Shown piece after piece: positions 1,681 to 43,524 of a stretch of DNA of 43,524 nt. The notes under the pieces are model-generated. The model had not been told where the DNA came from. It saw only the letters and a program-made list of their open reading frames with translations, and did no database searches. Both the position numbers and the translations under genes were made by a program. The stretch lies in assembly GCA_020351835.1 (NCBI GenBank), contig CP070669.1, forward strand, positions 983,198 to 1,026,721. The letters run 5' to 3'. Each line of letters begins with the position of its first letter. Position 1 is the first letter of the stretch. The DNA comes from Nitrospirota bacterium. Its GTDB lineage: Bacteria > Nitrospirota > Thermodesulfovibrionia > Thermodesulfovibrionales > BMS3Bbin05.

Positions 1681-2922
1681 TTATTTCTTTTCTCGGTTCT
1701 GTTTAAGGACCTTTTCAAAGGCCTCTAAATTAGGTTTGATATGATAAGGTTCTCCCATGTGGCCTTGCAGTGCCTCCTGGGTCTTCAGGCCGTTTCCCGT
1801 GATGCACAGCACAGTAGAACCGTTCTTCTTGATCTTTCCTGATTTTATCAGTTTCCTGGCGACAGCCACAGTGACCCCGCCGGCCGTCTCGGCAAAAATC
1901 CCCTCTGTACGGGCAAGGAGCTTCATCCCTTCTATTATCTCCTCATTGGTAGCGTCATCTCCATGCCCTCCTGAGTCCTTAACGCACTTGAAAGCATAAA
2001 ATCCGTCAGCGGGATTCCCGATAGCAAGTGACTTGGCTACCGTATCCGGCTTCACGGGAACAATGATATCAGTGTCCTTTTTTATGGCAGTTGCGATCGG
2101 ATTGCATCCTTCAGCCTGTGCTGAGAAGACCTTGGTATTGACATCCTTTAAGAGCCCTATCTCCTGGAACTCCTTCAGGCTCTTCCAGATCTTGGTCAGT
2201 AATGAACCGCTTGCGCAGGGTACAACTACATTGTCCGGGGCTTTCCACCCGAGTTGTTCAACGATCTCAAATCCCTGGGTCTTAGATCCCTCGGCGTAAT
2301 ACGGCCTGATATTTATATTTACAAATGCCCAGTTATACTTATTGGCTATCTCGCTGCATAGCCTGTTAACATCGTCATAGTTGCCGTCTACCGCCACCAG
2401 GTTTGGTGCATAGACCAGGGAAGCCGCTATCTTGCTGGCCTCAAGCGAAGCCGGTATGAAGATATACCTTTTAAAGCCTGCCTTTGCACCGTGGGCCGAG
2501 ACAGAGTGAGCCAGGTTTCCTGTAGAAGCGCATGCCACGGTATCGAAACCGAACTCTTTGGCTTTGGTAAGAGCAACCGCTACCACTCTGTCCTTAAAGG
2601 AAAGAGTAGGGTGAACAACCGTGTCATCCTTTACATAAAGCTCCTTTACCCCGAGCTCTTTGGCGAGATTATCCGCTTTTATAAGAGGGGTGAAACCAGA
2701 TGTCAGGCCTACCTGGGGTTCTCCGTCGATGGGAAGAAGCTCCTTGTAACGCCAAAGGCTTAACTCACGGCTCTCTATCTTCTTCCTCGTCAGGACCTTC
2801 TTTATGCCCTTGTAATCGTAAGCTACTTCAAGAGGTCCGAAGCAGAACTCGCAGACGTAGACCGGATCGGCATCGTACTCCCTTCCGCATTCACGGCATT
2901 TTAATCCTTTTACAAAGCCCAT
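1681..2922 (-). CDS. Zinc-ribbon threonine-synthase-like PLP enzyme, possible sulfhydrylase
   Basis: A 413-residue fold-type II PLP enzyme that automated tools would call threonine synthase. Cys9, Cys12, Cys24 and Cys27 form an N-terminal zinc ribbon, and SFKDR places the PLP lysine at residue 110. Two active-site stretches differ from the classical enzyme encoded at 20-1114: the nucleotide-like loop reads ASTGNLAHS instead of ASTGNTSAS, and the phosphate-site stretch reads NINIRPYYAEGSKT (202-215), with Tyr209 where the classical enzyme has Arg. It sits between a JAMM protease and a sulfur carrier, the same kind of grouping as mec-cysO-cysM in mycobacteria. It may therefore use a protein thiocarboxylate to make cysteine or homocysteine; that is inference. 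GAGGAG precedes the ATG. Confidence 0.85.
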   Translation of the reverse strand: MGFVKGLKCRECGREYDADPVYVCEFCFGPLEVAYDYKGIKKVLTRKKIESRELSLWRYKELLPIDGEPQVGLTSGFTPLIKADNLAKELGVKELYVKDDTVVHPTLSFKDRVVAVALTKAKEFGFDTVACASTGNLAHSVSAHGAKAGFKRYIFIPASLEASKIAASLVYAPNLVAVDGNYDDVNRLCSEIANKYNWAFVNINIRPYYAEGSKTQGFEIVEQLGWKAPDNVVVPCASGSLLTKIWKSLKEFQEIGLLKDVNTKVFSAQAEGCNPIATAIKKDTDIIVPVKPDTVAKSLAIGNPADGFYAFKCVKDSGGHGDDATNEEIIEGMKLLARTEGIFAETAGGVTVAVARKLIKSGKIKKNGSTVLCITGNGLKTQEALQGHMGEPYHIKPNLEAFEKVLKQNREKK

Positions 2923-16579: not shown

Positions 16580-18658
16580 TCACAGCCTTAGTTTGCATTT
16601 TTCGATGATCTCCAGTCCCTTCCTGCGCAGGTCCATGGCGACCCTGTTCTCGTTTGCCAGAGCGTTCTCTAACTTATCCAGGATGTCATAGTACAGGTTC
16701 CAGCCTTCTCTCTCTTGCTCAAGCATCTTGATTATAGGATTGGTTCTGGTGTCAAGACGCTTAATCATATCAAAAAGCCTGGCAGTGCCCAACTTAATCA
16801 GGTTGATCCCCTGGTCCACTTCCTCGCTTCTATCGGAGCCAAGGAGAGCTGCAGCCTTCAGAGCAAGACGCAGATACACAACTGTGAAAGGTATATGTGA
16901 GACAAAACAGCCGGTAAAAGGATCGATCAGCTCTTTGACCCTGGCGCGAGGCCATGGGAGTGCCCTTACGTAATACGAGAACCACAATATCCTTGCATAG
17001 TCCCCTATGATCTTTCCCAGATAGGCCCTTTTTATTGCCTCCTGGGCGAATGCCTCCTTGTCGTGTCTCATAATAAGCCCGGCCTTATGGACATAGCGCA
17101 GGTGGGGACCTGTATCGTTGAAAAGAACTGAGAGCAGATATGCCTGGTCCTCTGCACGACCTATGAAAGTTGGAGTAAAAGGCCTGTACTTCCTGAGGTG
17201 ATCTACCAATATTCCGCAAGTGCCTCCTGTAACGTGTATCCTCTGTATACAATGATCCCTGCCGTTGCAACTTCCCACGTCATACCTTGTCATCATCTCG
17301 GCTTCGGTCGACAGCGCCTGTGGCAGTGAGCTCTGAAATACAAGCTCGTCAGCTTTTATCTCCTCCGGAGGGAAACACACGTCAGGAAAGAACAACGATT
17401 CCGATATGTCCTTTTCATTGACCAGAGCACCGGCTATCATGCCCAGCTCTATTTTCTCACCGTTAGCATCTTCTCCTTTAGCGCCCCATAGTGGTGACTT
17501 GAAATGCTGGAATGCTGGTAGTGCCGTTTCTTCATATAGGACATCCTGGGGAAAGACCTGGTCAAGATCGATTTTGAACGTTCCTTTTATTGAGGGATCT
17601 ACGAGGACATGCCATAATGCAGACACCGCTTTTAGAAAACTGTAGTGCCTTCCATATTCACCGTCCACTCCGAAAATATCGTACAACAGGTCTGAATTCC
17701 TGGTATCCATGAAAATATTGACGGCAGGTATCATTACTTTATCCAGCAGCGATCTCGTATCTGATTCGCTGAAGATGAAGATATCTATGTTCCTTATCTT
17801 CTTAACCTTCCCGAACTCTTCTTCCAGATATTCTTTTATAAGGGATTGAAGCCCATTGTGAGTGGCGGATGCAGAGAGCACACAACTGATCCGGGCATTC
17901 TCACTCAGCAATCCTTTAGATCTTTCGAATTCCACTGCTTCATCAAGGGCTCTCATTCCATAGATGGCCTCGTTCTTTTCTGTTTCCACTCCTACCTGGA
18001 TAGGGTGGTCGAACCAGAATTGTTGATCTTCATTCATTATGTCGGACAGCTTCCTTTTAAGCTCCTCCGAGAGGTCCAGGCCCGGAATGTCTTCCTTCGA
18101 AGAAGGAGTGGTTATAAGAATGTTGGATGTGAACAGGACCTCTTTATCGGGCTCGCAAATGGGCTCTTCGTTCAGGCCGGTCACCCTTATCATTCTTCTA
18201 GTCCGTAGCTCTGATATCTTTTCCTGTCTGTACTGGCAGATATCGGATCCTTCAGGAAAGAAAACGCCCCTTATCCTCTCAACTGACTCTGCTCTGTCTG
18301 ACGCACTTTTTTCATTGTTCAGAAATTCTGCCAGATCCTCTATTGCAGATGTGAATTCAGGGTCCTCAGAGCTCTCATTCGCTATCTCTCTTAGTATGAG
18401 ATCGATCCCATAATTGAGAAATACCCTGGTGTTTTCAAGCTCTTCCTCATTCAGTGGTGTTCTAAGATAATCGACTGCACTGTTATACAGAGGATGGGCA
18501 CTGCCGGCTAGAGAGATAAGAAAGGATGAGTTGAGGTTCTTGATCACAGCGTCTTTCGATCTGTCAGAAATGTCCATTCCGGATATGTCTATCTTTGCCA
18601 GTCCGGGGCCGTCCATTCCGATCAGGTGCATTATTATGGACCCAAAGTTGTCCTTCAT
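16580..18658 (-). CDS. Large glycosyltransferase-like protein of unknown function
   Basis: A 692-residue soluble protein I cannot assign to a named family. The central part (about 215-520) looks like a GT-A glycosyltransferase: alternating hydrophobic strands (RISCVLSASATHNG; IDIFIFSES), a helix and strand leading to FKIDLDQVF with a DxD-type metal motif at 364-366, and FIGRAEDQAYLL (498-509), resembling the G-R-x-E-D catalytic segment of GT2-like enzymes. The N-terminal 200 residues are helical and unlike any domain I know. The C-terminal 170 residues are helical with a predicted coiled region at the end. It has no signal peptide or membrane span. It follows fxsA with overlapping-style coupling (TGATATG). 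The substrate is unknown. Confidence 0.7.
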   Translation of the reverse strand: MKDNFGSIIMHLIGMDGPGLAKIDISGMDISDRSKDAVIKNLNSSFLISLAGSAHPLYNSAVDYLRTPLNEEELENTRVFLNYGIDLILREIANESSEDPEFTSAIEDLAEFLNNEKSASDRAESVERIRGVFFPEGSDICQYRQEKISELRTRRMIRVTGLNEEPICEPDKEVLFTSNILITTPSSKEDIPGLDLSEELKRKLSDIMNEDQQFWFDHPIQVGVETEKNEAIYGMRALDEAVEFERSKGLLSENARISCVLSASATHNGLQSLIKEYLEEEFGKVKKIRNIDIFIFSESDTRSLLDKVMIPAVNIFMDTRNSDLLYDIFGVDGEYGRHYSFLKAVSALWHVLVDPSIKGTFKIDLDQVFPQDVLYEETALPAFQHFKSPLWGAKGEDANGEKIELGMIAGALVNEKDISESLFFPDVCFPPEEIKADELVFQSSLPQALSTEAEMMTRYDVGSCNGRDHCIQRIHVTGGTCGILVDHLRKYRPFTPTFIGRAEDQAYLLSVLFNDTGPHLRYVHKAGLIMRHDKEAFAQEAIKRAYLGKIIGDYARILWFSYYVRALPWPRARVKELIDPFTGCFVSHIPFTVVYLRLALKAAALLGSDRSEEVDQGINLIKLGTARLFDMIKRLDTRTNPIIKMLEQEREGWNLYYDILDKLENALANENRVAMDLRRKGLEIIEKCKLRL

Positions 18659-31572: not shown

Positions 31573-31618
31573 GGTTTTAAATTAAGTTAACCGCCACATG
31601 AGACAAAAGGAGGATGCT

Positions 31619-32578
31619 ATGAAGCGTTATGTCGTCGTTGCATTGTCACTGGTATTTGTCTTTGCTTTGTCTTTCAATTCAAGCGCCAAGAAGAGGATCG
31701 TTTTTGGTGGTGGCCCGGCCGGCGGTACATTTCAGGTCGTAGCCAATGCCATCCAGACCTATAAGCCGGTCAAGGATATTGAGGGATTTACGGTTAAAGC
31801 CCAGTCGTCGGCCGGTTCTGTGGAGAACCTGAGGAAGGTAAATTCCGGGAAACATGATTTTTCTGTTGTCTATTCGGGACATGTATACCTTGGCAGGAAC
31901 GGTTTAATGAAGAACGATAAGAAGAAGTACGAGAATGTCATGGCAGTTGCATATCTTTATGGCGCTCCTGCACAGCTTGTTGTGAAGAAGGGGTCCGGCA
32001 TAAAAAGTACTAAAGACCTGGTCGGCAAAAAGGTCGGTGTAGGAAATGCGGGATCTGGAGCCTTCGCTAACTGCGAGATGTTCTTTACTCACCTTGGCAT
32101 CTGGGATAAGATAGAGCGGAACGCTATGGGTTACAATGATGCTGCGCAGGCGTTCGGTAATAACCAGCTGGACGCTTTCTGGCTGTTTACTGCATTTCCA
32201 AGCGGTGCTGTCATAATGGCCGCCCAGACAAATGACATTGATCTCATAAATATCGGGAAAGATGCCGAAGAAAGCGGATACTTTAAAAAGTACCCTTATT
32301 TCGGAACGCTTTCTGTCCCGGCAGGGACGTACAGAGGAGTGGACCACGATACACCTTCCTTTTTTGACTCTACTCTATGGGTAGCGAACAAAGATGTTCC
32401 GGCGGATGTGGTCTATGAACTTCTTTCAAAGATTTTTACCGATGAAGGCTTAGCCCACATGGTAAGCCAGAAGAAGACATTCAAGGCAATGAGCGTCAAG
32501 GATGGTGTTAAAGGTATAGTGACACCACTTCATCCGGGTGCTGAGAGGTTCTGGAAAGAGAAGGGAATTATCAAATAA
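31619..32578 (+). CDS. TRAP transporter solute receptor, TAXI family
   Basis: Periplasmic substrate-binding protein of a TAXI-type TRAP transporter, 319 residues. The start at 31619 has AAAAGGAGG upstream and gives a clean signal peptide (MKRYVVVALSLVFVFALSFNSSAKK); an ATG at 31598 lacks both. The TAXI hallmarks are VFGGGPAGGTFQVVANAIQ, VKAQSSAGSVENLRKVNSGKHDFSVVYSG and VGVGNAGSGAFANCEMFF. Known or suspected ligands of the family include C4-C5 dicarboxylates and glutamate; the ligand here is not readable. It is followed by a fused permease and a UspA protein. Confidence 0.93.
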   Translation: MKRYVVVALSLVFVFALSFNSSAKKRIVFGGGPAGGTFQVVANAIQTYKPVKDIEGFTVKAQSSAGSVENLRKVNSGKHDFSVVYSGHVYLGRNGLMKNDKKKYENVMAVAYLYGAPAQLVVKKGSGIKSTKDLVGKKVGVGNAGSGAFANCEMFFTHLGIWDKIERNAMGYNDAAQAFGNNQLDAFWLFTAFPSGAVIMAAQTNDIDLINIGKDAEESGYFKKYPYFGTLSVPAGTYRGVDHDTPSFFDSTLWVANKDVPADVVYELLSKIFTDEGLAHMVSQKKTFKAMSVKDGVKGIVTPLHPGAERFWKEKGIIK

Positions 32579-32591
32579 GGCTTTAAGCGGA

Positions 32592-32624
32592 AACAGGGCG
32601 GTCGGTTAGGTCGATCGCCCTGTT
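32592..32624 (+). terminator. Intercistronic hairpin between receptor and permease genes
   Basis: A 13-bp stem (32592-32604 with 32612-32624, one G-T pair) and a 7-base loop. No strong T-run follows, so partial termination or 3'-end protection is more likely than full termination. Such hairpins commonly keep binding-protein mRNA in excess over permease mRNA. Confidence 0.6.
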
Positions 32625-32657
32625 ATTATGTCATTTTGTTTTCGAGGAACCAAATAA

Positions 32658-34379
32658 TTGTACGAAAAACTGCATAAGGTCGAAAAGGTCGTTTTTGATA
32701 TCTGCGCTCTTGCGCTGGTATTGTTCTATTCTTATGCAGCAGTCATCCAGCCCGCTGCTACACAGTATCACCGCGGTATATATGTGATAGTTACCTATGT
32801 CCTCGTGCTGCTTCTTTACAGGTCCAAGAACAAGTATATGCGAGTGGTCGACTATTTGCTTATGGTCCTTTCCATAGTAAGTGTCGGGTACTGGATAACT
32901 AACTTCGAGGCAATCAACTACCGTACAGGTGCCGAGACCCGGCTGGATGCCGTTATAGCGGTGATAGGCGTTCTGATGGGTATAGAGATAGCACGCCGCG
33001 TGGTCGGTACTGTATTTGTCGTTATGGGTATAATTCTGATTCTATATGGGGTGTATGGTGCATATATGCCGGAGCTCATATCACACGCCGGAGACACATT
33101 CCCTGAGCTATGTATAAGCATATTCTATAAGAGTGACGGTGTGTTCGGTATTATGGCAAATGTGCTCGCAACGTACATTATACTTTTCGTGATCTTTGGT
33201 GCTTTTCTTGAAAAGTGCGGTGCAGAGAAGTTCTTTATCGATTTTCCTCTTGCTGCTGTAGGTCATAAGGTGGGCGGCCCGGGCAAGGTGTCCGTTATAG
33301 CGAGCGGGCTTTTCGGATCTATCTCCGGGAGCGCGATCGCAAACACTGTATCCACGGGAGCATTTACGATACCTATGATGAAAAAAGCCGGCTTCCAGCC
33401 GCATGTAGCCGGTGGTATAGAACCCGCAGCGTCCATTGGAGGAATGTTCATGCCACCGATCATGGGTGCGGGCGGATTTATAATGGCAGAACTGACGGGT
33501 GTCCCGTATTCGAAAATAATGCTGGTTGCCCTGTTCCCTGCCATAATGTATTTCTACAGTGTCTACCTTATGGTCCATTTCTATGCTAAGAAGAACAATA
33601 TCGTGGGTGAAAGGTCAGAACACGGCGCCATAGAGATATTGAAGAGTGAGTGGTTCTATACATTACCTTTAGTTGTGATCACGGTTTTCATGCTAACGGG
33701 TTATTCCCCCGCTTACGCCGCGGTTTTGGGCATCATAGCCTGCTTTATTGTAAGCTGGTTCAGAAAAGATACACGTATAAAGCTCAAGGAGTTCGTTGAT
33801 GCTTCAAGGGCCGGGGCCGAAAGCAGTCTCAAGATCGGTGCTACCGTTGGGGTAATAGGGATCATAATAGGAGTGCTGACATATAGTGGTCTGGTGTTGA
33901 CGTTTGCTGATATTGTTATTGAGCTTGCGGCCGGAAGGCTGTTCGTTACAATACTGCTTATAGCACTGGCCTCTCTTATACTAGGTATGGGGGTACCCGT
34001 GACCGCGGCTTATCTTATTACTGCCGTGGTAGCAGTTCCTGCCCTTACTCACCTCGGAGTTAATGAGATCGCAGCACATATGATAGTATACTGGCTGTCT
34101 CAGGACTCTAATATCACCCCGCCGGTATGTATTGCGGCTTTTGCGGGAGCAACAATAGCAAAGGCAAATATGTGGAAAACTGCTTTGACATCATTTAAGT
34201 TTGCCAAGTTCTTATATCTGGGTGCATTCCTTTTTGGTTATGTTCCAGGATTTACCCTGGATGGAAGCACCACCGACATTATAAAAGCTTTCCTTCTGAT
34301 CATTATAGGTACTTACGGGTACAGCTGGCTTTTAAGCGGTATCTGGATGAAGCGTTTCAGGAGATCTGAAGCTCATTGA
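32658..34379 (+). CDS. TRAP transporter permease, fused DctQ-DctM
   Basis: A 573-residue integral membrane protein with about 14-16 helices, combining the small (DctQ-like, first about 120 residues) and large (DctM-like) subunits in one chain, as usual for TAXI-type TRAP systems. Conserved DctM segments include GLFGSISGSAIANTVSTGAFTIPMMKKAGF and PAASIGGMFMPPIMGAGGFIMAE, and the second half repeats the pattern (ILGMGVPVTAAYLI, SQDSNITPPVCIAAFAGATIA). The start is TTG at 32658, with GAGGA nine bases upstream. Substrate import is driven by an ion gradient. Confidence 0.93.
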   Translation: MYEKLHKVEKVVFDICALALVLFYSYAAVIQPAATQYHRGIYVIVTYVLVLLLYRSKNKYMRVVDYLLMVLSIVSVGYWITNFEAINYRTGAETRLDAVIAVIGVLMGIEIARRVVGTVFVVMGIILILYGVYGAYMPELISHAGDTFPELCISIFYKSDGVFGIMANVLATYIILFVIFGAFLEKCGAEKFFIDFPLAAVGHKVGGPGKVSVIASGLFGSISGSAIANTVSTGAFTIPMMKKAGFQPHVAGGIEPAASIGGMFMPPIMGAGGFIMAELTGVPYSKIMLVALFPAIMYFYSVYLMVHFYAKKNNIVGERSEHGAIEILKSEWFYTLPLVVITVFMLTGYSPAYAAVLGIIACFIVSWFRKDTRIKLKEFVDASRAGAESSLKIGATVGVIGIIIGVLTYSGLVLTFADIVIELAAGRLFVTILLIALASLILGMGVPVTAAYLITAVVAVPALTHLGVNEIAAHMIVYWLSQDSNITPPVCIAAFAGATIAKANMWKTALTSFKFAKFLYLGAFLFGYVPGFTLDGSTTDIIKAFLLIIIGTYGYSWLLSGIWMKRFRRSEAH

Positions 34380-34410
34380 GACAGATGATAAAATTTTCTT
34401 AGGATTGAAA

Positions 34411-34959
34411 ATGAAACATAAAGTTCCTGATAAGATACCCGATGTTAATTATAAAAGGATCCTCTACGCAACTGACCTTTCTGAAAGCGGACGTTTTGCA
34501 TTTCACCATGCGGCAGGTATCGCAAAAAAGTTCGGTTCGGAGCTTACGGTAATCCACGTTGTCGAGGGTGGTCCCGGAATGGACAGGAGACTGTTCGGCT
34601 ATATTGACGAGGAGCTATGGGAAGAGATCAAGACGCGAAACCTTCAGGAAGCAATGGATATTCTGGTCAGCAGAAAAAGGGATAACGCCGCCATAAAAGA
34701 GTGTGTCGGTCAGTTCTGTGATGAAGCAAAAGAAGGGATGCCGGGACGATCGGACATTGAGTATAACATCGAGGTCCGGATGGGTGATCCTGTAGAGATG
34801 ATAGTTGAGGCGGCTGAAAATGGCAGCTATGATCTTATTGTAATGGCAAGGCACGGAGGTAGGGCTGTGAAGACCGCTGTGCTTGGCGACACCGTAAGGC
34901 GTGTTATACGAAATACCGATATACCTGTGCTGATAATACGTGTCCCTGAAGATGACTAA
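34411..34959 (+). CDS. UspA-family universal stress protein
   Basis: A 182-residue single Usp domain. KRILYATDLSESGRFAFHHAAGIAKKFGSELTVIHVVEG is the usual first strand-helix-strand, and the nucleotide-binding motif ARHGGRAVKTAVLGDTVRRVI near the C-terminus is close to G-x2-G-x9-G-(S/T), so ATP binding is likely. The ATG at 34411 has AGGA six bases upstream; a TTG at 34405 is possible. The gene sits 31 bases after the TRAP permease. Usp proteins regulate some TRAP transporters (TeaD with TeaABC in Halomonas), so a similar role is plausible here. Confidence 0.92.
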   Translation: MKHKVPDKIPDVNYKRILYATDLSESGRFAFHHAAGIAKKFGSELTVIHVVEGGPGMDRRLFGYIDEELWEEIKTRNLQEAMDILVSRKRDNAAIKECVGQFCDEAKEGMPGRSDIEYNIEVRMGDPVEMIVEAAENGSYDLIVMARHGGRAVKTAVLGDTVRRVIRNTDIPVLIIRVPEDD

Positions 34960-35055
34960 GGGATATATATCGCAATATAAATCAAGATCTGTGTAGTTCA
35001 ATAACAGCCGATATCCCTATATAATTATTTTAAGTATGCTGTCAGCGTAACGAAA

Positions 35056-35901
35056 ATGAAACTGATACGATTCGGTGAACCTTCCAAAGAAAAACCGGGA
35101 ATAATTCTTAATAACGATGAAATTTATGATGTTTCTTCCTTCGGTGAGGACTATCACGAGCAATTCTTTGAGACCTGCGGGTTGGACAGGCTGAGAAAGT
35201 GGATTGAATTGAACGGACATCAGCTTAAGGCTATAAACATGCCTGTAAGATTGGGTCCTCCTGTCTGTCGTCCGAGCAAGATAGTATGTATCGGGTTCAA
35301 CTATAAGGACCACGCGCGGGAGACGGGCAGGGAACTTCCTGCCGAGCCCGTCTTCTTCCTTAAGGCCACTTCCGCTCTTGCCGGGCCCAATGATGACATT
35401 ATCTTACCGAGGAGCAGCGTTAAGACCGACTGGGAGGTCGAGTTGGCGGTCGTGGTCGGTAAAAGGGCTTCATACATCAGTATTGATGACGCAATGCGGT
35501 ATGTTGCCGGGTATGCTCTGTTCAATGACTATTCGGAAAGGGAGTTCCAGTTCGACAGGGGAGGTCAATGGGTCAAAGGCAAGAGCGCTGACACTTTCGG
35601 TCCGCTAGGGCCTTTTCTTGTCCCGGCAGAGGATATCCCGGACTGCCACGATCTTAATATGTGGTTGAATGTAAATGGAGAGAAAATGCAGGACAGCAAT
35701 ACGTCTAATATGCATTTTAATGTGCCTGCGTTAATATCGTCAGTAAGTCAATATATGACCTTATTGCCGGGTGATATCATAAGTACCGGAACACCTGCAG
35801 GGGTTGGGCACGGCATGGACCCGCCCAGATATCTTAAGCGGGGTGATACGGTCGAGTACGGGATCGAAGGGCTCGGTTCTGCTACCCAGCGTATCTTATG
35901 A
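35056..35901 (+). CDS. Fumarylacetoacetate hydrolase family protein
   Basis: A 281-residue metal-dependent enzyme of the FAH fold, whose members hydrolyse, decarboxylate or isomerise 2-keto acids (acylpyruvases, oxaloacetate decarboxylases, 2-hydroxyhepta-dienedioate isomerases). Landmarks are KIVCIGFNYKDHARE, KATSALAGPNDDIILP, WEVELAVVVGKRA with the metal-binding Glu, GYALFNDYSERE, KSADTFGPLGPFLV and GTPAGVGHG. Length and layout match YcgM/acylpyruvase-type proteins. A TATAAT box lies at 35020-35025 but no clear Shine-Dalgarno sequence. The specific substrate is unknown; the TRAP and AEC transporters on either side hint at organic-acid metabolism. Confidence 0.9.
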   Translation: MKLIRFGEPSKEKPGIILNNDEIYDVSSFGEDYHEQFFETCGLDRLRKWIELNGHQLKAINMPVRLGPPVCRPSKIVCIGFNYKDHARETGRELPAEPVFFLKATSALAGPNDDIILPRSSVKTDWEVELAVVVGKRASYISIDDAMRYVAGYALFNDYSEREFQFDRGGQWVKGKSADTFGPLGPFLVPAEDIPDCHDLNMWLNVNGEKMQDSNTSNMHFNVPALISSVSQYMTLLPGDIISTGTPAGVGHGMDPPRYLKRGDTVEYGIEGLGSATQRIL

Positions 35902-35949
35902 CCCACGAGTTAAAAATCAGCATTATAGCAGTGCTAACCATCATATAAT

Positions 35950-36858
35950 ATGTTGATCGCGCTAATACCAGTCTTCATTGTCATCCTTATAGGGTACGGC
36001 CTCAGGAGGGCCGGGTTCCCGGGTGACGAGTTCTGGCCGCATATAGAGAAGTTGACGTACTATGTATTGTTCCCCGCATTATTGTTCGAGAGGACTGTCA
36101 CAGTACAGCTTGATCCGGAGATAATTGGCCCGTCGGTAATTGTTCTTATTACCGTCGTGCTCACCATGTCGGCGTTCATTATGATCGTTCGAAACTGGTG
36201 GAGGGCTGGAGAGCCTGCATTCACTTCTTTCTTTCAGGGAAGCATACGTTTCAATACTTATATAGGTCTTTCAGCCTCTTACGCACTTTTCGGTGAGGGG
36301 GGGCTCTCTCTTGCTGCATTTATAGTGGCGATCTGGATACCTCTTGTAAATGTGCTCTGTGTGACTGTTCTTGTGGTATTTACCGGACATGGTGTCAACA
36401 GGTCCCGGACCATTGTACTTGAGATCGTTCGCAATCCGGTTATAGTCGCATGTGCCGGTGGATTATTATTCAACGCAACCGGGTTAGACCTTAATAAAGT
36501 ACTATTAGAATCGCTTAGCCTGTTTGGAAGGGCTTCTTTGCCCATGGGTCTCATGGCGGTAGGGGCCGGGCTTGAGCTTGCTTCAGCTCATAAGAATATT
36601 AAAATAGTCGCAGCATCATGTCTTCTAAAGCTTGTATTATTGCCATTGTTAATGCTGGTGATATCATCGGGGCTGGGCCTTGAAAGAACAATGACGCTGG
36701 TTGCGATATTGTTCGCGTCTCTGCCGGGTTCACCGCTTTCGTTCATCCTGGCCAGACAACTTGGTGGGGATAGCCGATTGATGGCGCATATCGTAACGGC
36801 CCAGATCATTGTCTCAATGATGACTATGCCGTTTATTATGTCTCTTGTTATCAGATAG
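35950..36858 (+). CDS. AEC-family transporter (auxin efflux carrier fold)
   Basis: A 302-residue membrane protein with about ten helices in two inverted halves, of the AEC family that in bacteria exports or exchanges organic acids such as malate and malonate. Conserved segments are IGYGLRRAGF, FPALLFERT, NTYIGLSASYALFGEGG, RNPVIVACAGGLLFN and the closing ASLPGSPLSFILARQLGGD. A TATAAT (35944-35949) immediately abuts the ATG, so the true transcription or translation start is unclear. It follows the FAH gene by 48 bases and converges on the flavoprotein gene at 36868. Confidence 0.88.
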   Translation: MLIALIPVFIVILIGYGLRRAGFPGDEFWPHIEKLTYYVLFPALLFERTVTVQLDPEIIGPSVIVLITVVLTMSAFIMIVRNWWRAGEPAFTSFFQGSIRFNTYIGLSASYALFGEGGLSLAAFIVAIWIPLVNVLCVTVLVVFTGHGVNRSRTIVLEIVRNPVIVACAGGLLFNATGLDLNKVLLESLSLFGRASLPMGLMAVGAGLELASAHKNIKIVAASCLLKLVLLPLLMLVISSGLGLERTMTLVAILFASLPGSPLSFILARQLGGDSRLMAHIVTAQIIVSMMTMPFIMSLVIR

Positions 36859-36867
36859 GTCTAATAT

Positions 36868-38097
36868 TTACAGCCAGCGTGACGGAGCATATGCATCTAT
36901 AAGACGCCTGAAAACTGCCTGGGTCACTATCTGACGTCCCCATCCATATTTTCCCCATGGTCTAAGGAACGACCATATATCCCTGATTATGCGCCTTCTG
37001 TCAGATCTGGAATGCCTTTTCAGTGCGGCCATAAAATCAGCCTCATGCGGATTGCCGAAGATTATCTTAAAAGGGTTCCACTGATCGGAACACCGTTTGA
37101 CCTCCGAAGAGATCATCTTCCGGTATGTATCCTGAATGCTGTTGTTATATCTTAAAGCGTCGACAGTGGCCTCCCCGGCGATGGCCCCCGAATGAAGAGC
37201 ACAGCTCATTCCTTCAGCTATAATGTTAAGAAAACCTGCGGCTTGCCCGGTAATTATTATATTACCCTTGCCGAACACGTAGCGGTTTATAAGGGACAGC
37301 CCGAAATTATTGATACTTCCCTCACGTTTCTCGGTTGGTTTAAGCCTTACACCGTGTTTTTCTTCAAGGTAACTGACGACCCTTTCGTGCCTTTTGTTCA
37401 GATCGTCACCGGCACCGTAGCCGACCCCTACGATCTGGCCTTCATTACGGAGGTGGCTCCAGGTGTAGAATCCAAGGTCAGGGTGGACCCAGAAGTGAAA
37501 GTAATCATCATCCAGAGGGCAGTCTATCCTTTCATGAAAATATTGTTTTACCTTGAACCAGGGGATCGTTTTTTCGTAGCCGGGATATACCGAGCGAACT
37601 ACCGTTGAATTCGGACCGTCAGCTCCCATTACATATCTCGCTCGATATCTGATATGCTCACCTTCCGTGCGTGCAATGACCTCAACGCTTGTACCTTTGT
37701 CCTCGACACTCTCGAGGTGTGTCCTTTCATGAACATCAGCTCCGCTTTGCAAGAGAGCCCAATGGTCCGAATACTTGCGGTTCAAATGAAGGGTAGGGCC
37801 GTAATGAAAATCCATCGGCATTGATAACATGGATGGGTAATGGAAAACCACGCCGCGGCAGGTCTTTGGACTATGTACGGCTTCATCCGGTACCGGACCG
37901 AAGTTCTCAAGAAGGAACCTGTGCCCTCTCGGTGAAACTATGCCACTACATGGTTTGTGGCGCGGAAGCTTCTTGTGCTCCAGTATAAGTGTGCTGTATC
38001 CCGAGTCTACCAACCTCTTTGCACAGGCAGCACCGGAGAAGCTCCCCCCTACTATGATCACATCATAATGAGAATGATACCTAGCCGAGGTTGCCAT
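36868..38097 (-). CDS. Geranylgeranyl reductase-family flavoprotein
   Basis: A 409-residue FAD-dependent enzyme of the geranylgeranyl reductase/p-hydroxybenzoate-hydroxylase superfamily. FAD motif DVIIVGGSFSGAACAKRL (13-30), the HKPCSGIVSPRG segment with the Cys typical of the reductase group (PCG/PCS), YVMGADGPNSTVVR, and NIIITGQAAGFLNIIAEGM for the second FAD contact. Members saturate double bonds of isoprenoid chains or oxidise varied substrates. GGAGGA precedes the ATG, which lies within the 3' end of the Fe-S gene (17-base overlap). Electrons may come from that Fe-S protein. The substrate is unknown. Confidence 0.87.
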   Translation of the reverse strand: MATSARYHSHYDVIIVGGSFSGAACAKRLVDSGYSTLILEHKKLPRHKPCSGIVSPRGHRFLLENFGPVPDEAVHSPKTCRGVVFHYPSMLSMPMDFHYGPTLHLNRKYSDHWALLQSGADVHERTHLESVEDKGTSVEVIARTEGEHIRYRARYVMGADGPNSTVVRSVYPGYEKTIPWFKVKQYFHERIDCPLDDDYFHFWVHPDLGFYTWSHLRNEGQIVGVGYGAGDDLNKRHERVVSYLEEKHGVRLKPTEKREGSINNFGLSLINRYVFGKGNIIITGQAAGFLNIIAEGMSCALHSGAIAGEATVDALRYNNSIQDTYRKMISSEVKRCSDQWNPFKIIFGNPHEADFMAALKRHSRSDRRRIIRDIWSFLRPWGKYGWGRQIVTQAVFRRLIDAYAPSRWL

Positions 38098-39061
38098 TGT
38101 CCTCCAGGATCTCTGTTATGAAAAGGACATCTGCCGGATATCCGGAAAACGGTTCTCTGTCCTCAATCTTTTCAACAATTATTCTCTTCGCAGGCCTTCC
38201 CTCAAGTATCCATGCTACCTGTCTTGCCGGGTCGACCAGCTTTTTGTCTTCATTCCTGTTATGTATCGTGACGCCAGAAGGGGTAGCGACCCGGTTCAGG
38301 TCAAGGTTCATCATGCATCCGGTCTTCTGTCTAAGCCCATCATAGATACTTGCGAGTTTTTTGAAGTCAGAATGATAAGTTCGAGAATCTATAATATAAA
38401 GGTCTTCCGGACCTATCATTTCTTCTAGGACAGAGCGCGTTATCATTCTTTCTCCCAATCCCATGACGTTGAGTTCAGGCATGAACCGCTTTATTACCCT
38501 GAAGATAAGTCCGTCTGTTGTCACTATCTCATCCGCCGTACTTAACATATCGATGAACTCATTAACTCTGTAGTTATCGACCTGGTTCCCGGCCTCGAGA
38601 GATGCCGATATGTCCTCTCCATTGTCTTCAAACACAGACCATTCTTCACCGAGTGCCTCGAGCGTTCTTTTAAGTATTGTATCGTCGTTCAGGATCAGTG
38701 AGTTCGCCAGAAGAACCTTGCCGTTAGCTCTAGCCCCCGGCACGGTAACGGGAGTTCCGCCGGTCCTCTCCCCTGACCCGGATCTTGCGTCTATCGTCCT
38801 GTCAACGGTATTAATATCATACGAGCAGAGAGGCTCGCAGGATCCGCACAATATACATGCATTTAGCGAATCTCTTATGTTCTCTTCCGTGCTGCTTTGC
38901 AAAATACGCGCTCTTCCGCAAAAAGTTAAAAAAGGATCACCCGTGTTATGCCAGACAGGGCATGAGAGCATGCATAATGAACACCCGTTGCAATGTTCGG
39001 TTCCTCTAGACCCCGAGGGTGTCATTGAGATACAAGTTCTATCGTTCCCGTTACTCTTCAT
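38081..39061 (-). CDS. Two-cluster [4Fe-4S] protein, GlcF/HdrC-like N-terminus
   Basis: A 326-residue soluble protein. Two ferredoxin-type motifs stand at the N-terminus: Cys24, Cys27, Cys30, Cys34 (CNGCSLCMLSCP) and Cys69, Cys72, Cys75, Cys79 (CILCGSCEPLCS), the spacing seen in GlcF, GlpC and HdrC-type proteins. The remaining 230 residues lack CCG domains and resemble nothing I can name beyond a Rossmann-like pattern. It lies one base after the flavin oxidoreductase gene and overlaps the next flavoprotein gene, so it probably shuttles electrons between the two. That role is inference. Confidence 0.83.
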   Translation of the reverse strand: MKSNGNDRTCISMTPSGSRGTEHCNGCSLCMLSCPVWHNTGDPFLTFCGRARILQSSTEENIRDSLNACILCGSCEPLCSYDINTVDRTIDARSGSGERTGGTPVTVPGARANGKVLLANSLILNDDTILKRTLEALGEEWSVFEDNGEDISASLEAGNQVDNYRVNEFIDMLSTADEIVTTDGLIFRVIKRFMPELNVMGLGERMITRSVLEEMIGPEDLYIIDSRTYHSDFKKLASIYDGLRQKTGCMMNLDLNRVATPSGVTIHNRNEDKKLVDPARQVAWILEGRPAKRIIVEKIEDREPFSGYPADVLFITEILEDNGNLG

Positions 39062-39062
39062 T

Positions 39063-40601
39063 TCAGAATATCACATCCCTGTTCAGGATCATCGAGGGAT
39101 CCGCCTTCTCTTTCATCTTAAGATACCTGTCGACCAGCTCATCACCGAATACCCTCCTTATGTATCCTTTCATCATTCCTCCGAACCTGTAGTAGCTGGT
39201 ACCCATCTCGACACCGATGTCGTATATCTCGTTCTTAAAGGACTGGAGGTAGTCACGGCTGTAGGTCTTTCCTTCAAGCATCGGCTCGAACTCGCATCCA
39301 TAAGCGAAATCCTGAGCGTCGGGCGGGATACATGAGAGCTCGTATCTGGGTAACTTACCGTGTAGTTTTATTCCAACGCAATAGAGCGTATAGTGATCGA
39401 AGTATTTCTTGCACACTTCATTCCCTTTAAGTATGGCATCTACGAACTTGTCTTCACTCGTTGCAAGATCAGGGATCACCATCTGGCGCCCTCCCCAGAA
39501 TCGCCATACAGCACGTGAAAAGACAACCGATCTGTCCACTATCTTTCCACTCGCAATGTGGTGTGAAGGTGATAATGCCGGCAGTAGTGTTCTCTTTCTG
39601 TCGAGGAGATAGAGAGCCTCGCGCAGTTTCCACGGCCTTAGCAGGTAATGGGCTGCAGTTCTTACTGCAAAACCCATCTCCCCGTGACCGCGTATCTTGT
39701 TTCTCCAATTGGAAAAGAACATTTTCTCTCTTTCATCCGAATCAAATGCAACCAGGAGATTGATAGCACGGTCGAGCATCGTCAGTATACCCAGGTAGTC
39801 GGCCGCATCCTCCCTCGTTAGCATCTTAAGGTCTTCCATAGCCTCTCTAAGAGAACTGTAATAGAAGTAATGCATGGTAATGGGAGTGAATGGCCTGATA
39901 CGAAGCGTTGCTTCAGTTATTATCCCGAACTGACCGTATCCAAGCAGAACCAGTTCGAAAAGGTCCCTGTTATCCTCCTCGGAACACTCGACAATATCCC
40001 CTCTGGGGGTTACGACCTTAAGAGCCACTGCCTGGTCGGCACTGCATCCTAATCTCGGAGAGTTTACATCGATACCTCCGACGCCCAGCGTCCCACCGAC
40101 CGATGATGTCATATTAAGCGGGGCGGAAAGATAATCCATGCCATATCTTCTGAGAGATTCTGCAAGTGAATGCCAGTATATGCCTGCCTCGGTCCTCACT
40201 GTCAGATCTTCCCTGTCAATATTGATCACCTTGCTCATCCCTCGCATATCGAGCTGGAGACCCCCGAAAGCTACGCTTTCTCCTTCCGTTGTCAATCCAC
40301 CGCCCTTTACCGTAACGGGAATGCGGTGCTTTTGAGCGGCTCTCATGATATCGGCTATCATTTCTGATGACCTTGCAATTACAACCCCATGGCATGAACC
40401 GGTGGCTACGCCCCCAGCATCCGACCGGTATAAGGACAGTTTTGAAGGCTCAGTAACAACATCAATCCCTGATGATCCAAGCTCACCAACGAACGCATCC
40501 CATCCTTTGCCACTCCACCTCGAAGGGTTCGTCTGCTGTCTCGGTATGCCGATCAGCGAATCTTTGCCTATGTGTTTTGACCCGTCTGTTTTATATGACA
40601 T
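39063..40601 (-). CDS. PCMH-type FAD-dependent oxidoreductase
   Basis: A 512-residue flavoenzyme with an N-terminal PCMH/FAD_binding_4 domain: VIARSSEMIADIMRAAQKHRIPVTVKGGGLTTEG, then SSVGGTLGVGGIDVNSPRLGCSADQ and VVTPRGDIVECSEEDNRDLFE. The C-terminal half fits neither GlcD nor D-lactate dehydrogenase well; the FAD part recalls cytokinin-dehydrogenase and Delta24-sterol-reductase-like enzymes. AGGA lies seven bases before the ATG. It is first in a three-gene minus-strand operon with a two-cluster Fe-S protein and a geranylgeranyl-reductase-like flavoprotein. Substrate unknown. The 158-base gap to the cytochrome genes shows nothing else I can support. Confidence 0.85.
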   Translation of the reverse strand: MSYKTDGSKHIGKDSLIGIPRQQTNPSRWSGKGWDAFVGELGSSGIDVVTEPSKLSLYRSDAGGVATGSCHGVVIARSSEMIADIMRAAQKHRIPVTVKGGGLTTEGESVAFGGLQLDMRGMSKVINIDREDLTVRTEAGIYWHSLAESLRRYGMDYLSAPLNMTSSVGGTLGVGGIDVNSPRLGCSADQAVALKVVTPRGDIVECSEEDNRDLFELVLLGYGQFGIITEATLRIRPFTPITMHYFYYSSLREAMEDLKMLTREDAADYLGILTMLDRAINLLVAFDSDEREKMFFSNWRNKIRGHGEMGFAVRTAAHYLLRPWKLREALYLLDRKRTLLPALSPSHHIASGKIVDRSVVFSRAVWRFWGGRQMVIPDLATSEDKFVDAILKGNEVCKKYFDHYTLYCVGIKLHGKLPRYELSCIPPDAQDFAYGCEFEPMLEGKTYSRDYLQSFKNEIYDIGVEMGTSYYRFGGMMKGYIRRVFGDELVDRYLKMKEKADPSMILNRDVIF

Positions 40602-40759: not shown

Positions 40760-41521
40760 TCAGTACTTCTTGGTCTTTATCTTTGGATGGCACGGCCTGC
40801 AGAACTGGACAGGAAGGGCTACATTATAGTGACAGGCTCCGCAGAACTTGCGTTCAAGAATGTATTTCATCCTGAAATGCTTTGTTCCCTTTTCTTTTAT
40901 GTTGAATATGTCCGGATGGCAATCCGCGCAATCAAGCCACCTTATATGTGTCTTGTGGCGGAACACTGATACTGCATCGTCGGCCATTGACCATTCAGGT
41001 TGCAATACCAGGGTTTTCTTGAAAGGGATAGATTCATAATTGTCATCAAATACACTTTGTTTAGGAGAGATGAGGCCCTTCCTTATTGCCCTTGACCAGT
41101 TTATCTTATCCCCAAATGGTGTTTTAGGAAGTCTCTTTGAAAGTTCTTCGAACTTCTCCCGGCCATAATCTATGTTGCCATTGTGGCATTTGTCGCAGTT
41201 ATCTTCAGTATGACCGAAAGCTATGTCACCGTTGTGGCAAGCGCCACAGTATTCACCGTTAAGATTAGCCTCTTCCGTGATCTCGGTATCACCTGTTTTC
41301 ATGGCGAAATCAAGCTCAAAGTGACATACCCTGCATGTATACCTCGTTCGGTGAACCCAGTGAGAGAATATTGCAGGTTTTTGCCCGGCCTTTTCTGATG
41401 TGCGGTTCAGAAGGAAGTTGCCGTACTGGGACGGCGGCGGCAGCTCGGGAAAGTTCCAAAAGGTTTCGTAGCTAGCCCCTACCAGAAGCAGTACGCAGAT
41501 AAGAAGAACGACACCTCGCAT
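40760..41521 (-). CDS. Hexahaem c7-type cytochrome A
   Basis: A 253-residue exported cytochrome with an N-terminal hydrophobic segment (VVLLICVLLLVGAS) that may stay as an anchor. Six CxxCH haem sites: CRVCH, CGACH, CDKCH, then CADCH, CGACH, CRPCH. They form two copies of the three-haem c7-like domain, each starting with a His-rich F-S/R-H-x2-H stretch that supplies distal ligands and containing CGACHNG- or CGACHY-type centres. Such proteins carry electrons across the periplasm in metal-respiring bacteria. It is a paralogue of the next gene upstream, 51 bases away. Confidence 0.92.
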   Translation of the reverse strand: MRGVVLLICVLLLVGASYETFWNFPELPPPSQYGNFLLNRTSEKAGQKPAIFSHWVHRTRYTCRVCHFELDFAMKTGDTEITEEANLNGEYCGACHNGDIAFGHTEDNCDKCHNGNIDYGREKFEELSKRLPKTPFGDKINWSRAIRKGLISPKQSVFDDNYESIPFKKTLVLQPEWSMADDAVSVFRHKTHIRWLDCADCHPDIFNIKEKGTKHFRMKYILERKFCGACHYNVALPVQFCRPCHPKIKTKKY

Positions 41522-41572
41522 ATCTCTTATATCCAGATCAGATAACTAAGCAAAGTCAGAATATGGTATCGA

Positions 41573-42334
41573 TCAATATACCTCTTTTATGTGACAAAGC
41601 TGGCAATCATAGAACGGAAAGGCGACTTTGTCATGACATGCGCCGCAGTACATTCCATTGAATATCTCTTCCATGGTGTACTTGGTCGCACCCTTCTTGG
41701 CACCAAATATCTCCGGATGACAGAGCTCGCAACCGTTCATTACGGCATGTTTCTTGTGAGAGAAGATGATGTCCGGCATGCCAAGGATAGTGGACTTAAT
41801 ATCAAAGTCCTTCTGAGGATCTAATGCTTTTCTCTGCATGGAAACACCTTCTATGAAATCGATCAGTTTCATTTTTCCGTTTTCTTCAGCCTTTAACCAG
41901 TCTACGCGGTTGCCGAAACGTGCTTGCGGCATGCCCTTGATAGAGTCATAAAAGGCCTTTGGCGAAGATTTCTTTCCAAACGAATGGCACTTCTCGCAGT
42001 TGTCCCTGGCCTGGGAGTTGAAAGCAATGTCCCCGTTATGGCATGTCCCACAAAAAAGACCGAGCTGATTGTCTTCCTCCATGATGCCCGTTCCTCCTGC
42101 CTGCATTGCAAAGCCCACGTCAACATGACACACTCTGCATGTGTACTTCTTCCTGTGTATCCAGTGCTTAAAGACGACAGGGGCAATATTCTCTTTTTCA
42201 GAGTAATTATTTATCACAACATTGCCGAACTCATGAGGCCTTTTCATTCTTTTCTTTGTTCCAAATGTCGCTGCGAACGCGACAGAAACAGATAAGAGAA
42301 CTATACCCGAGATTATCAACACCCTTGTTTTCAT
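41573..42334 (-). CDS. Hexahaem c7-type cytochrome B
   Basis: A 253-residue paralogue of the gene at 40760-41521. A signal peptide (MKTRVLIISGIVLLSVSVAFAATFG) precedes two three-haem domains: CRVCH, CGTCH, CEKCH and CELCH, CGACH, CQLCH. Shared segments such as HRKKYTCRVCH and CHNGDIAF show a local duplication. I use ATG 42334 with GGGGG eight bases upstream; a GTG at 42343 is possible. A promoter (TTGACT, 17 bases, TAGAAT) directly upstream suggests that the pair forms its own transcript, separate from the large cytochrome. Confidence 0.92.
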   Translation of the reverse strand: MKTRVLIISGIVLLSVSVAFAATFGTKKRMKRPHEFGNVVINNYSEKENIAPVVFKHWIHRKKYTCRVCHVDVGFAMQAGGTGIMEEDNQLGLFCGTCHNGDIAFNSQARDNCEKCHSFGKKSSPKAFYDSIKGMPQARFGNRVDWLKAEENGKMKLIDFIEGVSMQRKALDPQKDFDIKSTILGMPDIIFSHKKHAVMNGCELCHPEIFGAKKGATKYTMEEIFNGMYCGACHDKVAFPFYDCQLCHIKEVY

Positions 42335-42366
42335 TCTGAACACCCCCGTATCGGAAATATTTTTAA

Positions 42367-42395
42367 ATTCTATACAATAACCGGCTATTAGTCAA
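42367..42395 (-). promoter_or_regulatory. Sigma-70 promoter of the hexahaem cytochrome pair
   Basis: On the minus strand TTGACT (42390-42395), 17 bases, then TAGAAT (42367-42372). The expected leader is about 26 bases and contains the ribosome-binding site of the gene starting at 42334. Confidence 0.65.
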
Positions 42396-42416
42396 ATATA
42401 TTAAATTGTGCGGCTA

Positions 42417-43524
42417 TCACCTGTGGCAGTATTTGCACAGGTCAGCCGGTTTTTCCGTTTCATAACGGAACAGGTTTCCCCAGTCAGAGCTGTGGGGATC
42501 ATGACATCCAGAGCATGACATCCTTGTGCCTGGCCTTCTTGGGTTCTCAACCGTAGACAGAGGATGATTCTTCGCTTCGCCGTCTTTCGCCTTTGGCAAC
42601 TTTGTCACCGGGTGAGGTCTGTCAAAGTTCCTCTTGTGACACTTCTTGCAGTTATCGTCGACATCGGTCTTGAGAAGCCCCCTGTCTGACGTAGAGTGAA
42701 TACCGTGACAATCATAACATCTGCCGTCAGCAACCGGTTTGTGGACCTTTGCTCTTCTAAAACCTTCCGCATTGTGGCACTTATAGCATAGCTTCGGCAC
42801 TGTATCATGGAGCAGCTTCTTACCCTCGCTCTGATGAGCATCATGGCAGTCACTACACATTCCTATCTTGAAGGGGCCGTGCTGGTTTCTTCCCATGAAC
42901 TCCTGCTCCATGTGACAGTCGAAACACAGGGCCTTTGTTGATTTTGCGAGCATATTGTTGGACTTTGAAGAATGAGGGTTATGACAGGTCGAGCAACGGC
43001 CCGATGCGACAGGCCTGTGGACGTTCTTCCCGCTGGTGTAGTTCTTTTGGTCATGACATGTGAAACACAGATCAGGCTGCTTCGAGGCCATCAGGTTCTC
43101 ATTCCTGGATACGTGAGCATCATGGCATGCAAGGCATCTGCCGTCCTCTACCGGTTCATGCAATACACCAAGCTCGAACATCTTCTTCTCATGACAGCTG
43201 TAACAAAGATCAGGAGTGCTTTTCAGTAACAGGTTCTTGTCATCACCGCTATGAGGGTCATGACATGCGGAGCAGTTGCCTAATATGATCGGCTGGTGTA
43301 TGGACTGGCCTGACCTCAGGGCACCCTTATCATGACACTGGAAGCAGAGTTCGGTTGTATCAAAAGCAAGAAGCTTAGAACTGTGCTCAGAGCTGTGAGG
43401 GTCATGGCAGAAATTGCACATTCCGGCCTCAGCGGGAAAGTGTGCATTCTTCTTAGACATTATCTTCCTGTCATGGCAATTAAAGCACTGGTCAGCCGGA
43501 TTTACCTTGAGAAGACCGGGGTAT
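42417..43524 (-). CDS. Large multihaem cytochrome, doubled CxxCH type (5' end outside window)
   Basis: The reading frame is open to the window edge. The internal ATG at 43460 is not a likely start, because codons before it encode VNPADQCFNCHDRK, another haem site in register with the repeats. At least 369 residues and 15 CxxCH sites are visible. They come in alternating pairs, C-F/Y-x-CH (after a P-D/K-LC turn) and GxC-x2-CHDPH/A-S (after an H-x-P-V/I run), with a unit of about 36 residues: the doubled CxxCH motif family. The pattern loosens only in the last three haems. Such proteins act as electron conduits in the periplasm or at the cell surface. Signal peptide and full length lie outside. 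Confidence 0.93.
   Translation of the reverse strand, partial: YPGLLKVNPADQCFNCHDRKIMSKKNAHFPAEAGMCNFCHDPHSSEHSSKLLAFDTTELCFQCHDKGALRSGQSIHQPIILGNCSACHDPHSGDDKNLLLKSTPDLCYSCHEKKMFELGVLHEPVEDGRCLACHDAHVSRNENLMASKQPDLCFTCHDQKNYTSGKNVHRPVASGRCSTCHNPHSSKSNNMLAKSTKALCFDCHMEQEFMGRNQHGPFKIGMCSDCHDAHQSEGKKLLHDTVPKLCYKCHNAEGFRRAKVHKPVADGRCYDCHGIHSTSDRGLLKTDVDDNCKKCHKRNFDRPHPVTKLPKAKDGEAKNHPLSTVENPRRPGTRMSCSGCHDPHSSDWGNLFRYETEKPADLCKYCHR

What the first reader, a model, noticed from the sequence alone, without database searches (positions are those of the whole stretch)
36868..40601. Three-gene flavin/Fe-S/flavin redox module
A PCMH-type FAD enzyme, a two-cluster Fe-S protein without CCG domains and a geranylgeranyl-reductase-like FAD enzyme are coupled by a 1-base gap and a 17-base overlap. 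Two different flavin folds that are each known to act on isolated isoprenoid C=C bonds (GGR, and Delta24-sterol-reductase-like PCMH enzymes), joined by an electron carrier, suggest reduction or oxidation of an isoprenoid, quinone tail or other lipid. I know of no described system of this composition.
Basis: partly seen in the sequence, partly recalled or inferred. Interest (0 to 1): 0.56.

Follow-up and report, generated by a model that had tools for sequence, protein, structure and literature searches.

The report
Conserved three-protein flavin/iron-sulfur electron relay
Three neighbouring genes, found together in the same order in several phyla of uncultured bacteria, seem to form one electron-passing machine of two flavin enzymes joined by an iron-sulfur protein, whose substrate is not yet identified.

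Summary
The three ORFs lie as described (1-base gap, 17-base overlap) and form a fixed unit. Of 80 loci found through the PCMH protein alone (Nitrospirota, Elusimicrobiota, Pseudomonadota, a Planctomycetota and a deltaproteobacterial bin), 78 have the Fe-S gene next and 73 have all three in order on one strand; most others are cut by contig ends. No other neighbour is conserved. The three protein trees agree (Mantel r 0.83-0.88).

Corrections: the Fe-S protein has the predicted fold of the CCG/HdrB domain (LutA Z 11.9, EtfD Z 12.8) but not its cluster cysteines, so it is a two-cubane relay. The PCMH enzyme is not a GlcD/D-lactate dehydrogenase; its nearest fold is cytokinin dehydrogenase. The GGR-like enzyme keeps the catalytic-type Cys and YxW but has SH for FP in the GGR motif (35 of 35) and falls below the GGR cut-off.

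Sterols, hopanoids and carotenoids are excluded as a common substrate, and carriers share no quinone type. Best reading: PCMH oxidises a polar donor and passes electrons through two [4Fe-4S] clusters to the GGR-like enzyme, which reduces a lipid, perhaps polyprenyl, C=C. Substrates are unproven.

The parts
39063..40601 (-). Gene 1: PCMH-type (FAD_binding_4) flavoenzyme, 512 aa, cytokinin-dehydrogenase-like fold; first gene of the unit
   Evidence: family 63-76% identical over full length
40293..40295 (-). Codon of Leu103, at the place of the covalent-FAD histidine of CKX-type enzymes; Leu in 54 of 54
   Evidence: against the alignment printed; that this is the FAD-linking His is recalled
38081..39061 (-). 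Gene 2: two-cluster Fe-S protein with a CCG/HdrB-like C-terminal fold lacking the cluster cysteines, 326 aa
38954..38998 (-). First ferredoxin motif, Cys24/27/30/34 (residues 22-36)
   Evidence: Cys in 48 of 48, 48 of 48, 48 of 48 and 49 of 49 members with a residue there
38825..38857 (-). Second ferredoxin motif, Cys69/72/75/79
   Evidence: Cys in 49, 49, 49 and 48 of 49
38084..38725 (-). CCG/HdrB-like fold, residues 113-326, cluster cysteines gone; only Cys249 conserved (48 of 50)
   Evidence: sequence-level link to true CCG proteins not significant
36868..38097 (-). Gene 3: geranylgeranyl-reductase-like FAD enzyme, 409 aa
37948..37950 (-). Codon of Cys50, aligned with the Cys of an archaeal GGR (4opu, taken as the S. 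acidocaldarius enzyme; recalled); 35 of 35
   Evidence: role of that Cys from PMC10821996
37453..37467 (-). Y-T-W-S-H (residues 211-215) at the place of the GGR motif PxxYxWxFP; invariant in 35 of 35
38081..38097 (-). 17-base overlap of genes 2 and 3
38101..38105 (-). GGAGG ribosome-binding sequence of gene 3, inside gene 2

Best explanation
The three proteins form one cytoplasmic, possibly membrane-touching oxidoreductase. The PCMH flavoenzyme takes two electrons from a small polar donor and passes them one at a time through the two cubane [4Fe-4S] clusters of the middle protein to the FAD of the GGR-like enzyme, which reduces a C=C bond of a lipid-like substrate, most plausibly a linear polyprenyl chain. 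The middle protein is built on the GlcF/GlpC/EtfD plan (two ferredoxin clusters plus CCG fold) but lacks the clusters of the CCG part, so that part is now only a scaffold or docking surface. Shown: gene order, conservation, cluster motifs, absence of CCG cysteines. Predicted: folds. Inferred: complex formation, electron direction, both substrates.
For: Fixed order and strand in 73 of 80 PCMH-found loci, genes overlapping or nearly so (47 of 73 Fe-S/GGR junctions overlap by extrapolated start, 62 of 73 within 100 bases). Congruent trees. In one Gallionellaceae bin where GGR is not next to PCMH-FeS, it is still present on another contig. Eight cluster cysteines conserved, spaced like clusters D3/D4 of EtfD (PMC13083937, passages). 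Fold matches. GGR-type Cys and YxW kept. Archaeal GGR paralogues often lie beside ferredoxin genes (PMC10821996, passages and section 7). No transporter, regulator or pathway gene is conserved beside the unit, which fits a substrate that every carrier makes.
Against: The GGR-like protein scores 112.8 bits against a cut-off of 158.8 for the GGR family, its profile matches FADH2-dependent halogenases better than GGR in the PDB, and FP of the substrate motif is SH. No lipid biosynthesis gene is linked. Direction of electron flow is not tested. The Fe-S protein diverges much faster (29-56% identity to the window protein) than its partners. No complex was modelled.
Confidence: 0.45

Rival explanations
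1. Respiratory dehydrogenase: PCMH oxidises an organic donor, electrons run through the two clusters to the GGR/FixC-like flavoprotein, which reduces membrane quinone in the manner of ETF:quinone oxidoreductase. The GGR-like subunit takes over the acceptor role that a CCG part plays elsewhere.
For: GlcD-GlcF type pairing of PCMH with an FeS-CCG protein is a common respiratory plan (recalled); the middle protein is nearest to EtfD, which feeds menaquinone (PMC13083937); FixC appears among the PDB matches of the GGR profile.
Against: Carriers share no quinone: MqnA/D in 12 of 12 Nitrospirota carriers; above-cut-off UbiG and no MqnA/D in 4 of 9 other carriers; none of MqnA/D, MenD or UbiG above cut-off in Elusimicrobium G314 (bins may be incomplete, and a quinone enzyme may accept both kinds). 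No conserved catabolic neighbour. The FixC match covers only profile positions 6-49.
Confidence: 0.22
2. Internal redox shuffle: both flavoenzymes act on one substrate or two steps of one pathway, the electrons removed by one being used by the other, with no net redox change.
For: A closed two-flavin, two-cluster unit with no dedicated external redox partner gene; strong conservation of both flavoenzymes, mean column identity 67% each.
Against: No substrate or product is known; the PCMH C-terminal half has invariant charged residues (E437, E439, R472, K478), more like a polar substrate than a purely lipid one.
Confidence: 0.13
3. Ordinary D-2-hydroxyacid (glycolate/lactate) dehydrogenase operon with a chance GGR neighbour.
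For: GlcD is the best NCBIfam match of the PCMH protein (65.7 bits); LDHD follows CKX closely in the fold comparison (Z 26.3 against 28.5).
Against: Score far below the GlcD cut-off of 567.9 and limited to residues 73-257; no FAD-oxidase_C domain found; HxGDGNxH-type and GEHGxG motifs in 0 of 54; GGR present in order in 73 of 80 loci.
Confidence: 0.03

Closest known systems
Geranylgeranyl reductase superfamily (archaeal GGR, BchP/ChlP; also the myxobacterial sterol C-24 reductase)
   Same: FAD fold over residues 11-310, Cys50 at the catalytic-type Cys, YxW kept
   Different: Below the family cut-off; FP of PxxYxWxFP replaced by SH in 35 of 35; tied to a PCMH enzyme and a two-cluster protein
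[quoted passage not shown]
   Same: Similar kinds of component, as reported in PMC10821996 (section 7)
   Different: Saci_0316 lacks the Cys47 equivalent, which ours keeps; the kind of FAD-binding protein is not stated there; homology could not be tested here
Cytokinin dehydrogenase, LDHD, GLDH, DprE1 (PCMH/VAO fold)
   Same: Whole-length fold: CKX Z 28.5 rmsd 2.8 over 405 aa; LDHD Z 26.3; GLDH 25.9; DprE1 25.5
   Different: 22% identity or less; no covalent-FAD His; sequence match confined to the FAD domain region
EtfD / HdrBC / LutAB / GlcF-type Fe-S plus CCG proteins
   Same: Two cubane motifs followed by CCG fold; EtfD Z 12.8 over 300 aa, LutA Z 11.9 over 202 aa, HdrB Z 10.2-10.4
   Different: Extra-cluster cysteines absent; no membrane part; shorter (326 aa)

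Membership tests
Geranylgeranyl reductase | Score above the family cut-off (TIGR02032, 158.8 bits) | tested here: not met
   112.8 bits, though still the best NCBIfam family
Geranylgeranyl reductase | Catalytic-type Cys (Cys47 of S. acidocaldarius GGR) | tested here: met
   Cys50 aligned with the 4opu Cys, 35 of 35; importance from PMC10821996
Geranylgeranyl reductase | PxxYxWxFP substrate motif | tested here: not met
   YTWSH in 35 of 35: Y and W kept, F and P lost
Geranylgeranyl reductase | Reduction of isolated isoprenoid C=C | not testable with these tools
   needs an enzyme assay
GlcD / D-2-hydroxyacid dehydrogenase | FAD-oxidase_C domain | tested here: not met
   only FAD_binding_4 found at E up to 0.001
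GlcD / D-2-hydroxyacid dehydrogenase | Metal/substrate motifs HxGDGNxH and GEHGxG (recalled) | tested here: not met
   0 of 54 each
GlcD / D-2-hydroxyacid dehydrogenase | Score above TIGR00387 cut-off | tested here: not met
   65.7 against 567.9 bits
Cytokinin dehydrogenase | Whole-length fold | tested here: met
   Z 28.5, rmsd 2.8, 405 aligned; LDHD lies within about 2 Z, so not specific
Cytokinin dehydrogenase | Covalent-FAD histidine in the GHS motif (recalled) | tested here: not met
   GLT, Leu103 in 54 of 54 (alignment)
DHCR24-type sterol reductase | Sequence clustering with DHCR24 | not tested
   no DHCR24 sequence was reachable
DHCR24-type sterol reductase | Sterol pathway in the host | tested here: not met
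   no true cyclase (E below 1e-100) in 21 carriers; no squalene synthase family in 12 Nitrospirota carriers
CCG/HdrB-like proteins | CCG fold | tested here: met
   on a predicted model with mean pLDDT 90.3
CCG/HdrB-like proteins | Cluster-binding cysteines and Pfam CCG match | tested here: not met
   Pfam CCG 0 of 50; only Cys249 conserved in that part

The most novel reading that the evidence does not exclude
A self-fuelled polyprenyl-lipid reductase: a cytokinin-dehydrogenase-like enzyme supplies electrons through a cysteine-stripped HdrB/GlcF-type scaffold, reduced to two cubane clusters, to a GGR-like enzyme that saturates a linear polyprenyl lipid, also in bacteria that lack squalene, carotenoids and hopanoids. 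This would be a new electron source for C=C reduction and a second life of the CCG fold without its clusters.
Probability: 0.22. Interest if true: 0.75.

Novelty: new variant of a known kind. Interest (0 to 1): 0.52.

Why it matters
A three-gene unit kept together across several phyla, with both flavoenzymes about 55-76% identical to the window's copies, probably does one specific job. Of the 80 loci listed, 78 titles say MAG and the other two are named bins, so the function has had little chance to surface in laboratory strains. It gives a testable case of a dehydrogenase wired to a GGR-type reductase, and of a CCG-fold protein without its catalytic clusters.

Tried and rejected
Sterol/hopanoid reading: rejected. 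True squalene-hopene cyclase (E below 1e-100) occurs only in G004 and G005 of 42 genomes, and neither showed the module. Five further weak matches (E 1e-11 to 1e-16, three of them in carriers G024, G034 and G104) are above Pfam's cut-off but lie in open frames of 1692 to 6147 codons and were not counted as cyclases. Carotenoid reading: rejected for Nitrospirota carriers (0 of 12), while 8 of 9 other carriers do have squalene/phytoene synthase, so it is not excluded there. Menaquinone-specific or ubiquinone-specific role: rejected as a common role. Cytochromes upstream (40760-43460) as part of the unit: rejected; one of 80 loci has a similar gene at E 1e-8, and one of nine loci (L056) has a short c7-like gene downstream.

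Sequence homology of the Fe-S C-terminus to true CCG proteins: not significant (local E 0.049, probability 1%), so only the fold is claimed. Whole-protein profile comparison aligned only the ferredoxin part. A family tree against CKX and DHCR24 was not made because their sequences could not be fetched. Paper searches for a described system of this make-up found none (listings and abstract starts, one open-licence library only); nearest is the Saci_0316 locus. Searches on groundwater Elusimicrobia and on Thermodesulfovibrio quinones gave nothing that I used. The plasmid collection has no relative of the Fe-S protein.

Rows dropped: PCMH alignment A4 has 54 rows, taken from the 58 non-redundant of 80 loci after leaving out one cut row and several over-extended frames, plus the window and L050; A5 has 50 rows and A6 35, thinned likewise. 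Trees use 43 of 66 complete loci plus the window (every second Pseudomonadota row kept). Only the best 80 of 149 PCMH relatives were returned.
Full report
Observation. The gap is 1 base and the overlap 17 bases. A GGAGG sequence sits just before the GGR start inside the Fe-S gene. Pfam gives FAD_binding_4, Fer4_8 and FAD_binding_3.

Conservation near the window. The window lies in a single-contig genome of 2.29 Mb. Among 101 genomes (its own and relatives of the same order) the long Fe-S family (E below 1e-30) is in 9, the PCMH family (E below 1e-30) in 8, and module-type GGR in 9; two further GGR-like hits are a 35% paralogue in G050 and a 30% hit in G032. The nine carriers are G000, G024, G034, G035, G044, G050, G060, G089 and G090. 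In the eight relatives the genes that the contig allows one to see are adjacent and in order (with style tblastn coordinates). The same-genus genome G001 shows none.

Conservation further away. A scan of 84,980 species genomes with a PCMH alignment gave 149 relatives; 80 were returned. By record title they are Nitrospirota, Elusimicrobiota, Betaproteobacteria (Gallionella, Sulfuritalea, Rhodocyclales and others), Gammaproteobacteria, a deltaproteobacterial bin, a Planctomycetota bin and a few unnamed bacteria. tblastn finds the Fe-S gene next to the PCMH gene in 78 of 80 and all three on one strand in 73 of 80. Of the seven without GGR, L072, L108, L114, L130 and L134 end at or close to the contig edge, L112 has only 474 bases left after the Fe-S match and no GGR detected in them, and L104 has its GGR on another contig of the same genome. 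A second GGR of this kind, in G618, also lacks Fe-S and PCMH within 1.5 kb; whether that genome has them elsewhere was not searched. In Nitrospirota 13 of 295 genomes hold the PCMH family at E 1e-25, each with a best match below 1e-113. In the order of a Gallionella bin (G312) 3 of 300 hold it (E below 1e-299); the next hit (9.7e-29) covers model positions 64-318 only. The family is thus sharply separated from other PCMH enzymes.

Nothing else is conserved beside it. Clustering of all ORFs in the 80 loci shows only the three proteins, shadow frames of them, and neighbours shared by up to 12 loci, mostly close relatives. The direct upstream and downstream ORFs show no recurring gene outside close relatives, judged by eye.

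Evolution. Trees of the three proteins group rows by phylum with few changes, and agree with each other (shared splits 22-25 of 41; Mantel r 0.83-0.88 against null maxima of 0.21-0.31). The unit has been inherited or lost as a whole; frequent recent transfer between phyla is not seen. The Fe-S protein evolves much faster, and the window's copy is on a long branch.

The Fe-S protein. AlphaFold gives a mean pLDDT of 90.3. The best solved match is mycobacterial EtfD (Z 12.8, 300 residues). Residues 113-326 match LutA (Z 11.9) and HdrB (Z 10.2-10.4). So the C-terminus has the CCG fold by prediction. But the cluster cysteines are absent: in 50 members only Cys249 is conserved there, against eight cysteines of the two ferredoxin motifs, and Pfam CCG is hit in 0 of 50. 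Sequence comparison with true CCG proteins is not significant. EtfD carries a linear and a noncubane cluster in its CCG part, then two cubanes (PMC13083937, passages); here only the cubanes can remain. Disulfide or similar noncubane chemistry is therefore not expected.

The PCMH protein. The model (mean pLDDT 79.3) matches cytokinin dehydrogenases best (Z 28.5), then LDHD, GLDH and DprE1 (Z about 25-26). Sequence matches cover only the FAD domain region. Leu103 stands where CKX has the FAD-linking His (54 of 54), and the hydroxyacid dehydrogenase motifs occur in 0 of 54 (motifs recalled). It is not a glycolate or D-lactate dehydrogenase by these tests. DHCR24 could not be tested.

The GGR-like protein. 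TIGR02032 is the best family but under its cut-off (112.8 of 158.8 bits). Cys50 aligns with the Cys of the archaeal enzyme 4opu and YxW is kept, while FP of the substrate motif is SH in 35 of 35 (motif and role of the Cys from PMC10821996, passages). The family profile meets FADH2-dependent halogenases before GGR in the PDB.

What the substrate is not. No carrier of 21 searched has a true squalene-hopene cyclase. None of the 12 Nitrospirota carriers, including the window's own genome, has a squalene/phytoene synthase, though 8 of the 9 other carriers do. All 12 Nitrospirota carriers and G316 have the futalosine menaquinone family; G312, G313, G318 and G421 have above-cut-off UbiG and no menaquinone gene was found; G314, G315, G317 and G611 show none of the three at the thresholds used; MenD is above cut-off in 0 of 21. 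So sterols, hopanoids, carotenoids and any one quinone headgroup are excluded as a common substrate, with the caveat that most of these genomes are bins. Linear polyprenyl chains remain, as do non-isoprenoid lipids.

Explanation. I take the unit for one oxidoreductase in which the PCMH flavin and the GGR-like flavin exchange electrons through two cubane clusters, most likely towards the GGR-like enzyme. The linkage and folds are well supported; complex formation, direction and substrates are inferred. The chief rival is a respiratory enzyme that ends on quinone.

Known or new. No paper found (search listings) describes this composition in bacteria. [quoted passage not shown] The abstract of PMC12004948 describes an alternative bacterial reductase for sterol C-24, a GGR homologue by its title, which shows that the family reaches beyond classical GGR substrates.

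Noticed in passing
window 40760-43460, minus strand: Two tandem related triheme c7-type cytochromes (TIGR04257) and a seven-fold paired-CXXCH multiheme cytochrome lie just upstream of the unit on the same strand; not conserved beside the unit elsewhere.
   Followed up: partly
window 31598-36858, plus strand: Solute-binding protein, fused TRAP permease, Usp protein, FAA-hydrolase family protein and auxin-efflux-type transporter in a row, facing the unit; looks like an organic-acid uptake operon.
   Followed up: no
window 1681-2922, minus strand: A PLP-dependent enzyme whose residues 8-32 match the phage protein family NinF above its cut-off.
   Followed up: no
window 16580-18658, minus strand: A 692-aa ORF without any Pfam match at E 1e-5.
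   Followed up: no
L050:1799-2746 (G034): This Fe-S family member has lost the fourth Cys of the second motif (CxxCxxCEPAF), so one cluster may be three-Cys or absent there.
   Followed up: partly
L058:6892-8097: A 35% identical GGR paralogue in carrier G050 lies on a contig with a gene that looks like ispG (isoprenoid precursor synthesis; named by eye) and has no Fe-S or PCMH partner in the stretch read.
   Followed up: no
L127, L135, L138: Record titles call these MAGs 'Bordetella parapertussis'; their isolate names are of the same style as other environmental bins in the list (such as L098), so the titles look like misnaming and should not be read as a pathogen carrying the unit.
   Followed up: no
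L150 (G155): The PCMH gene is split between reading frames in this bin, a pseudogene or an assembly error.
   Followed up: no
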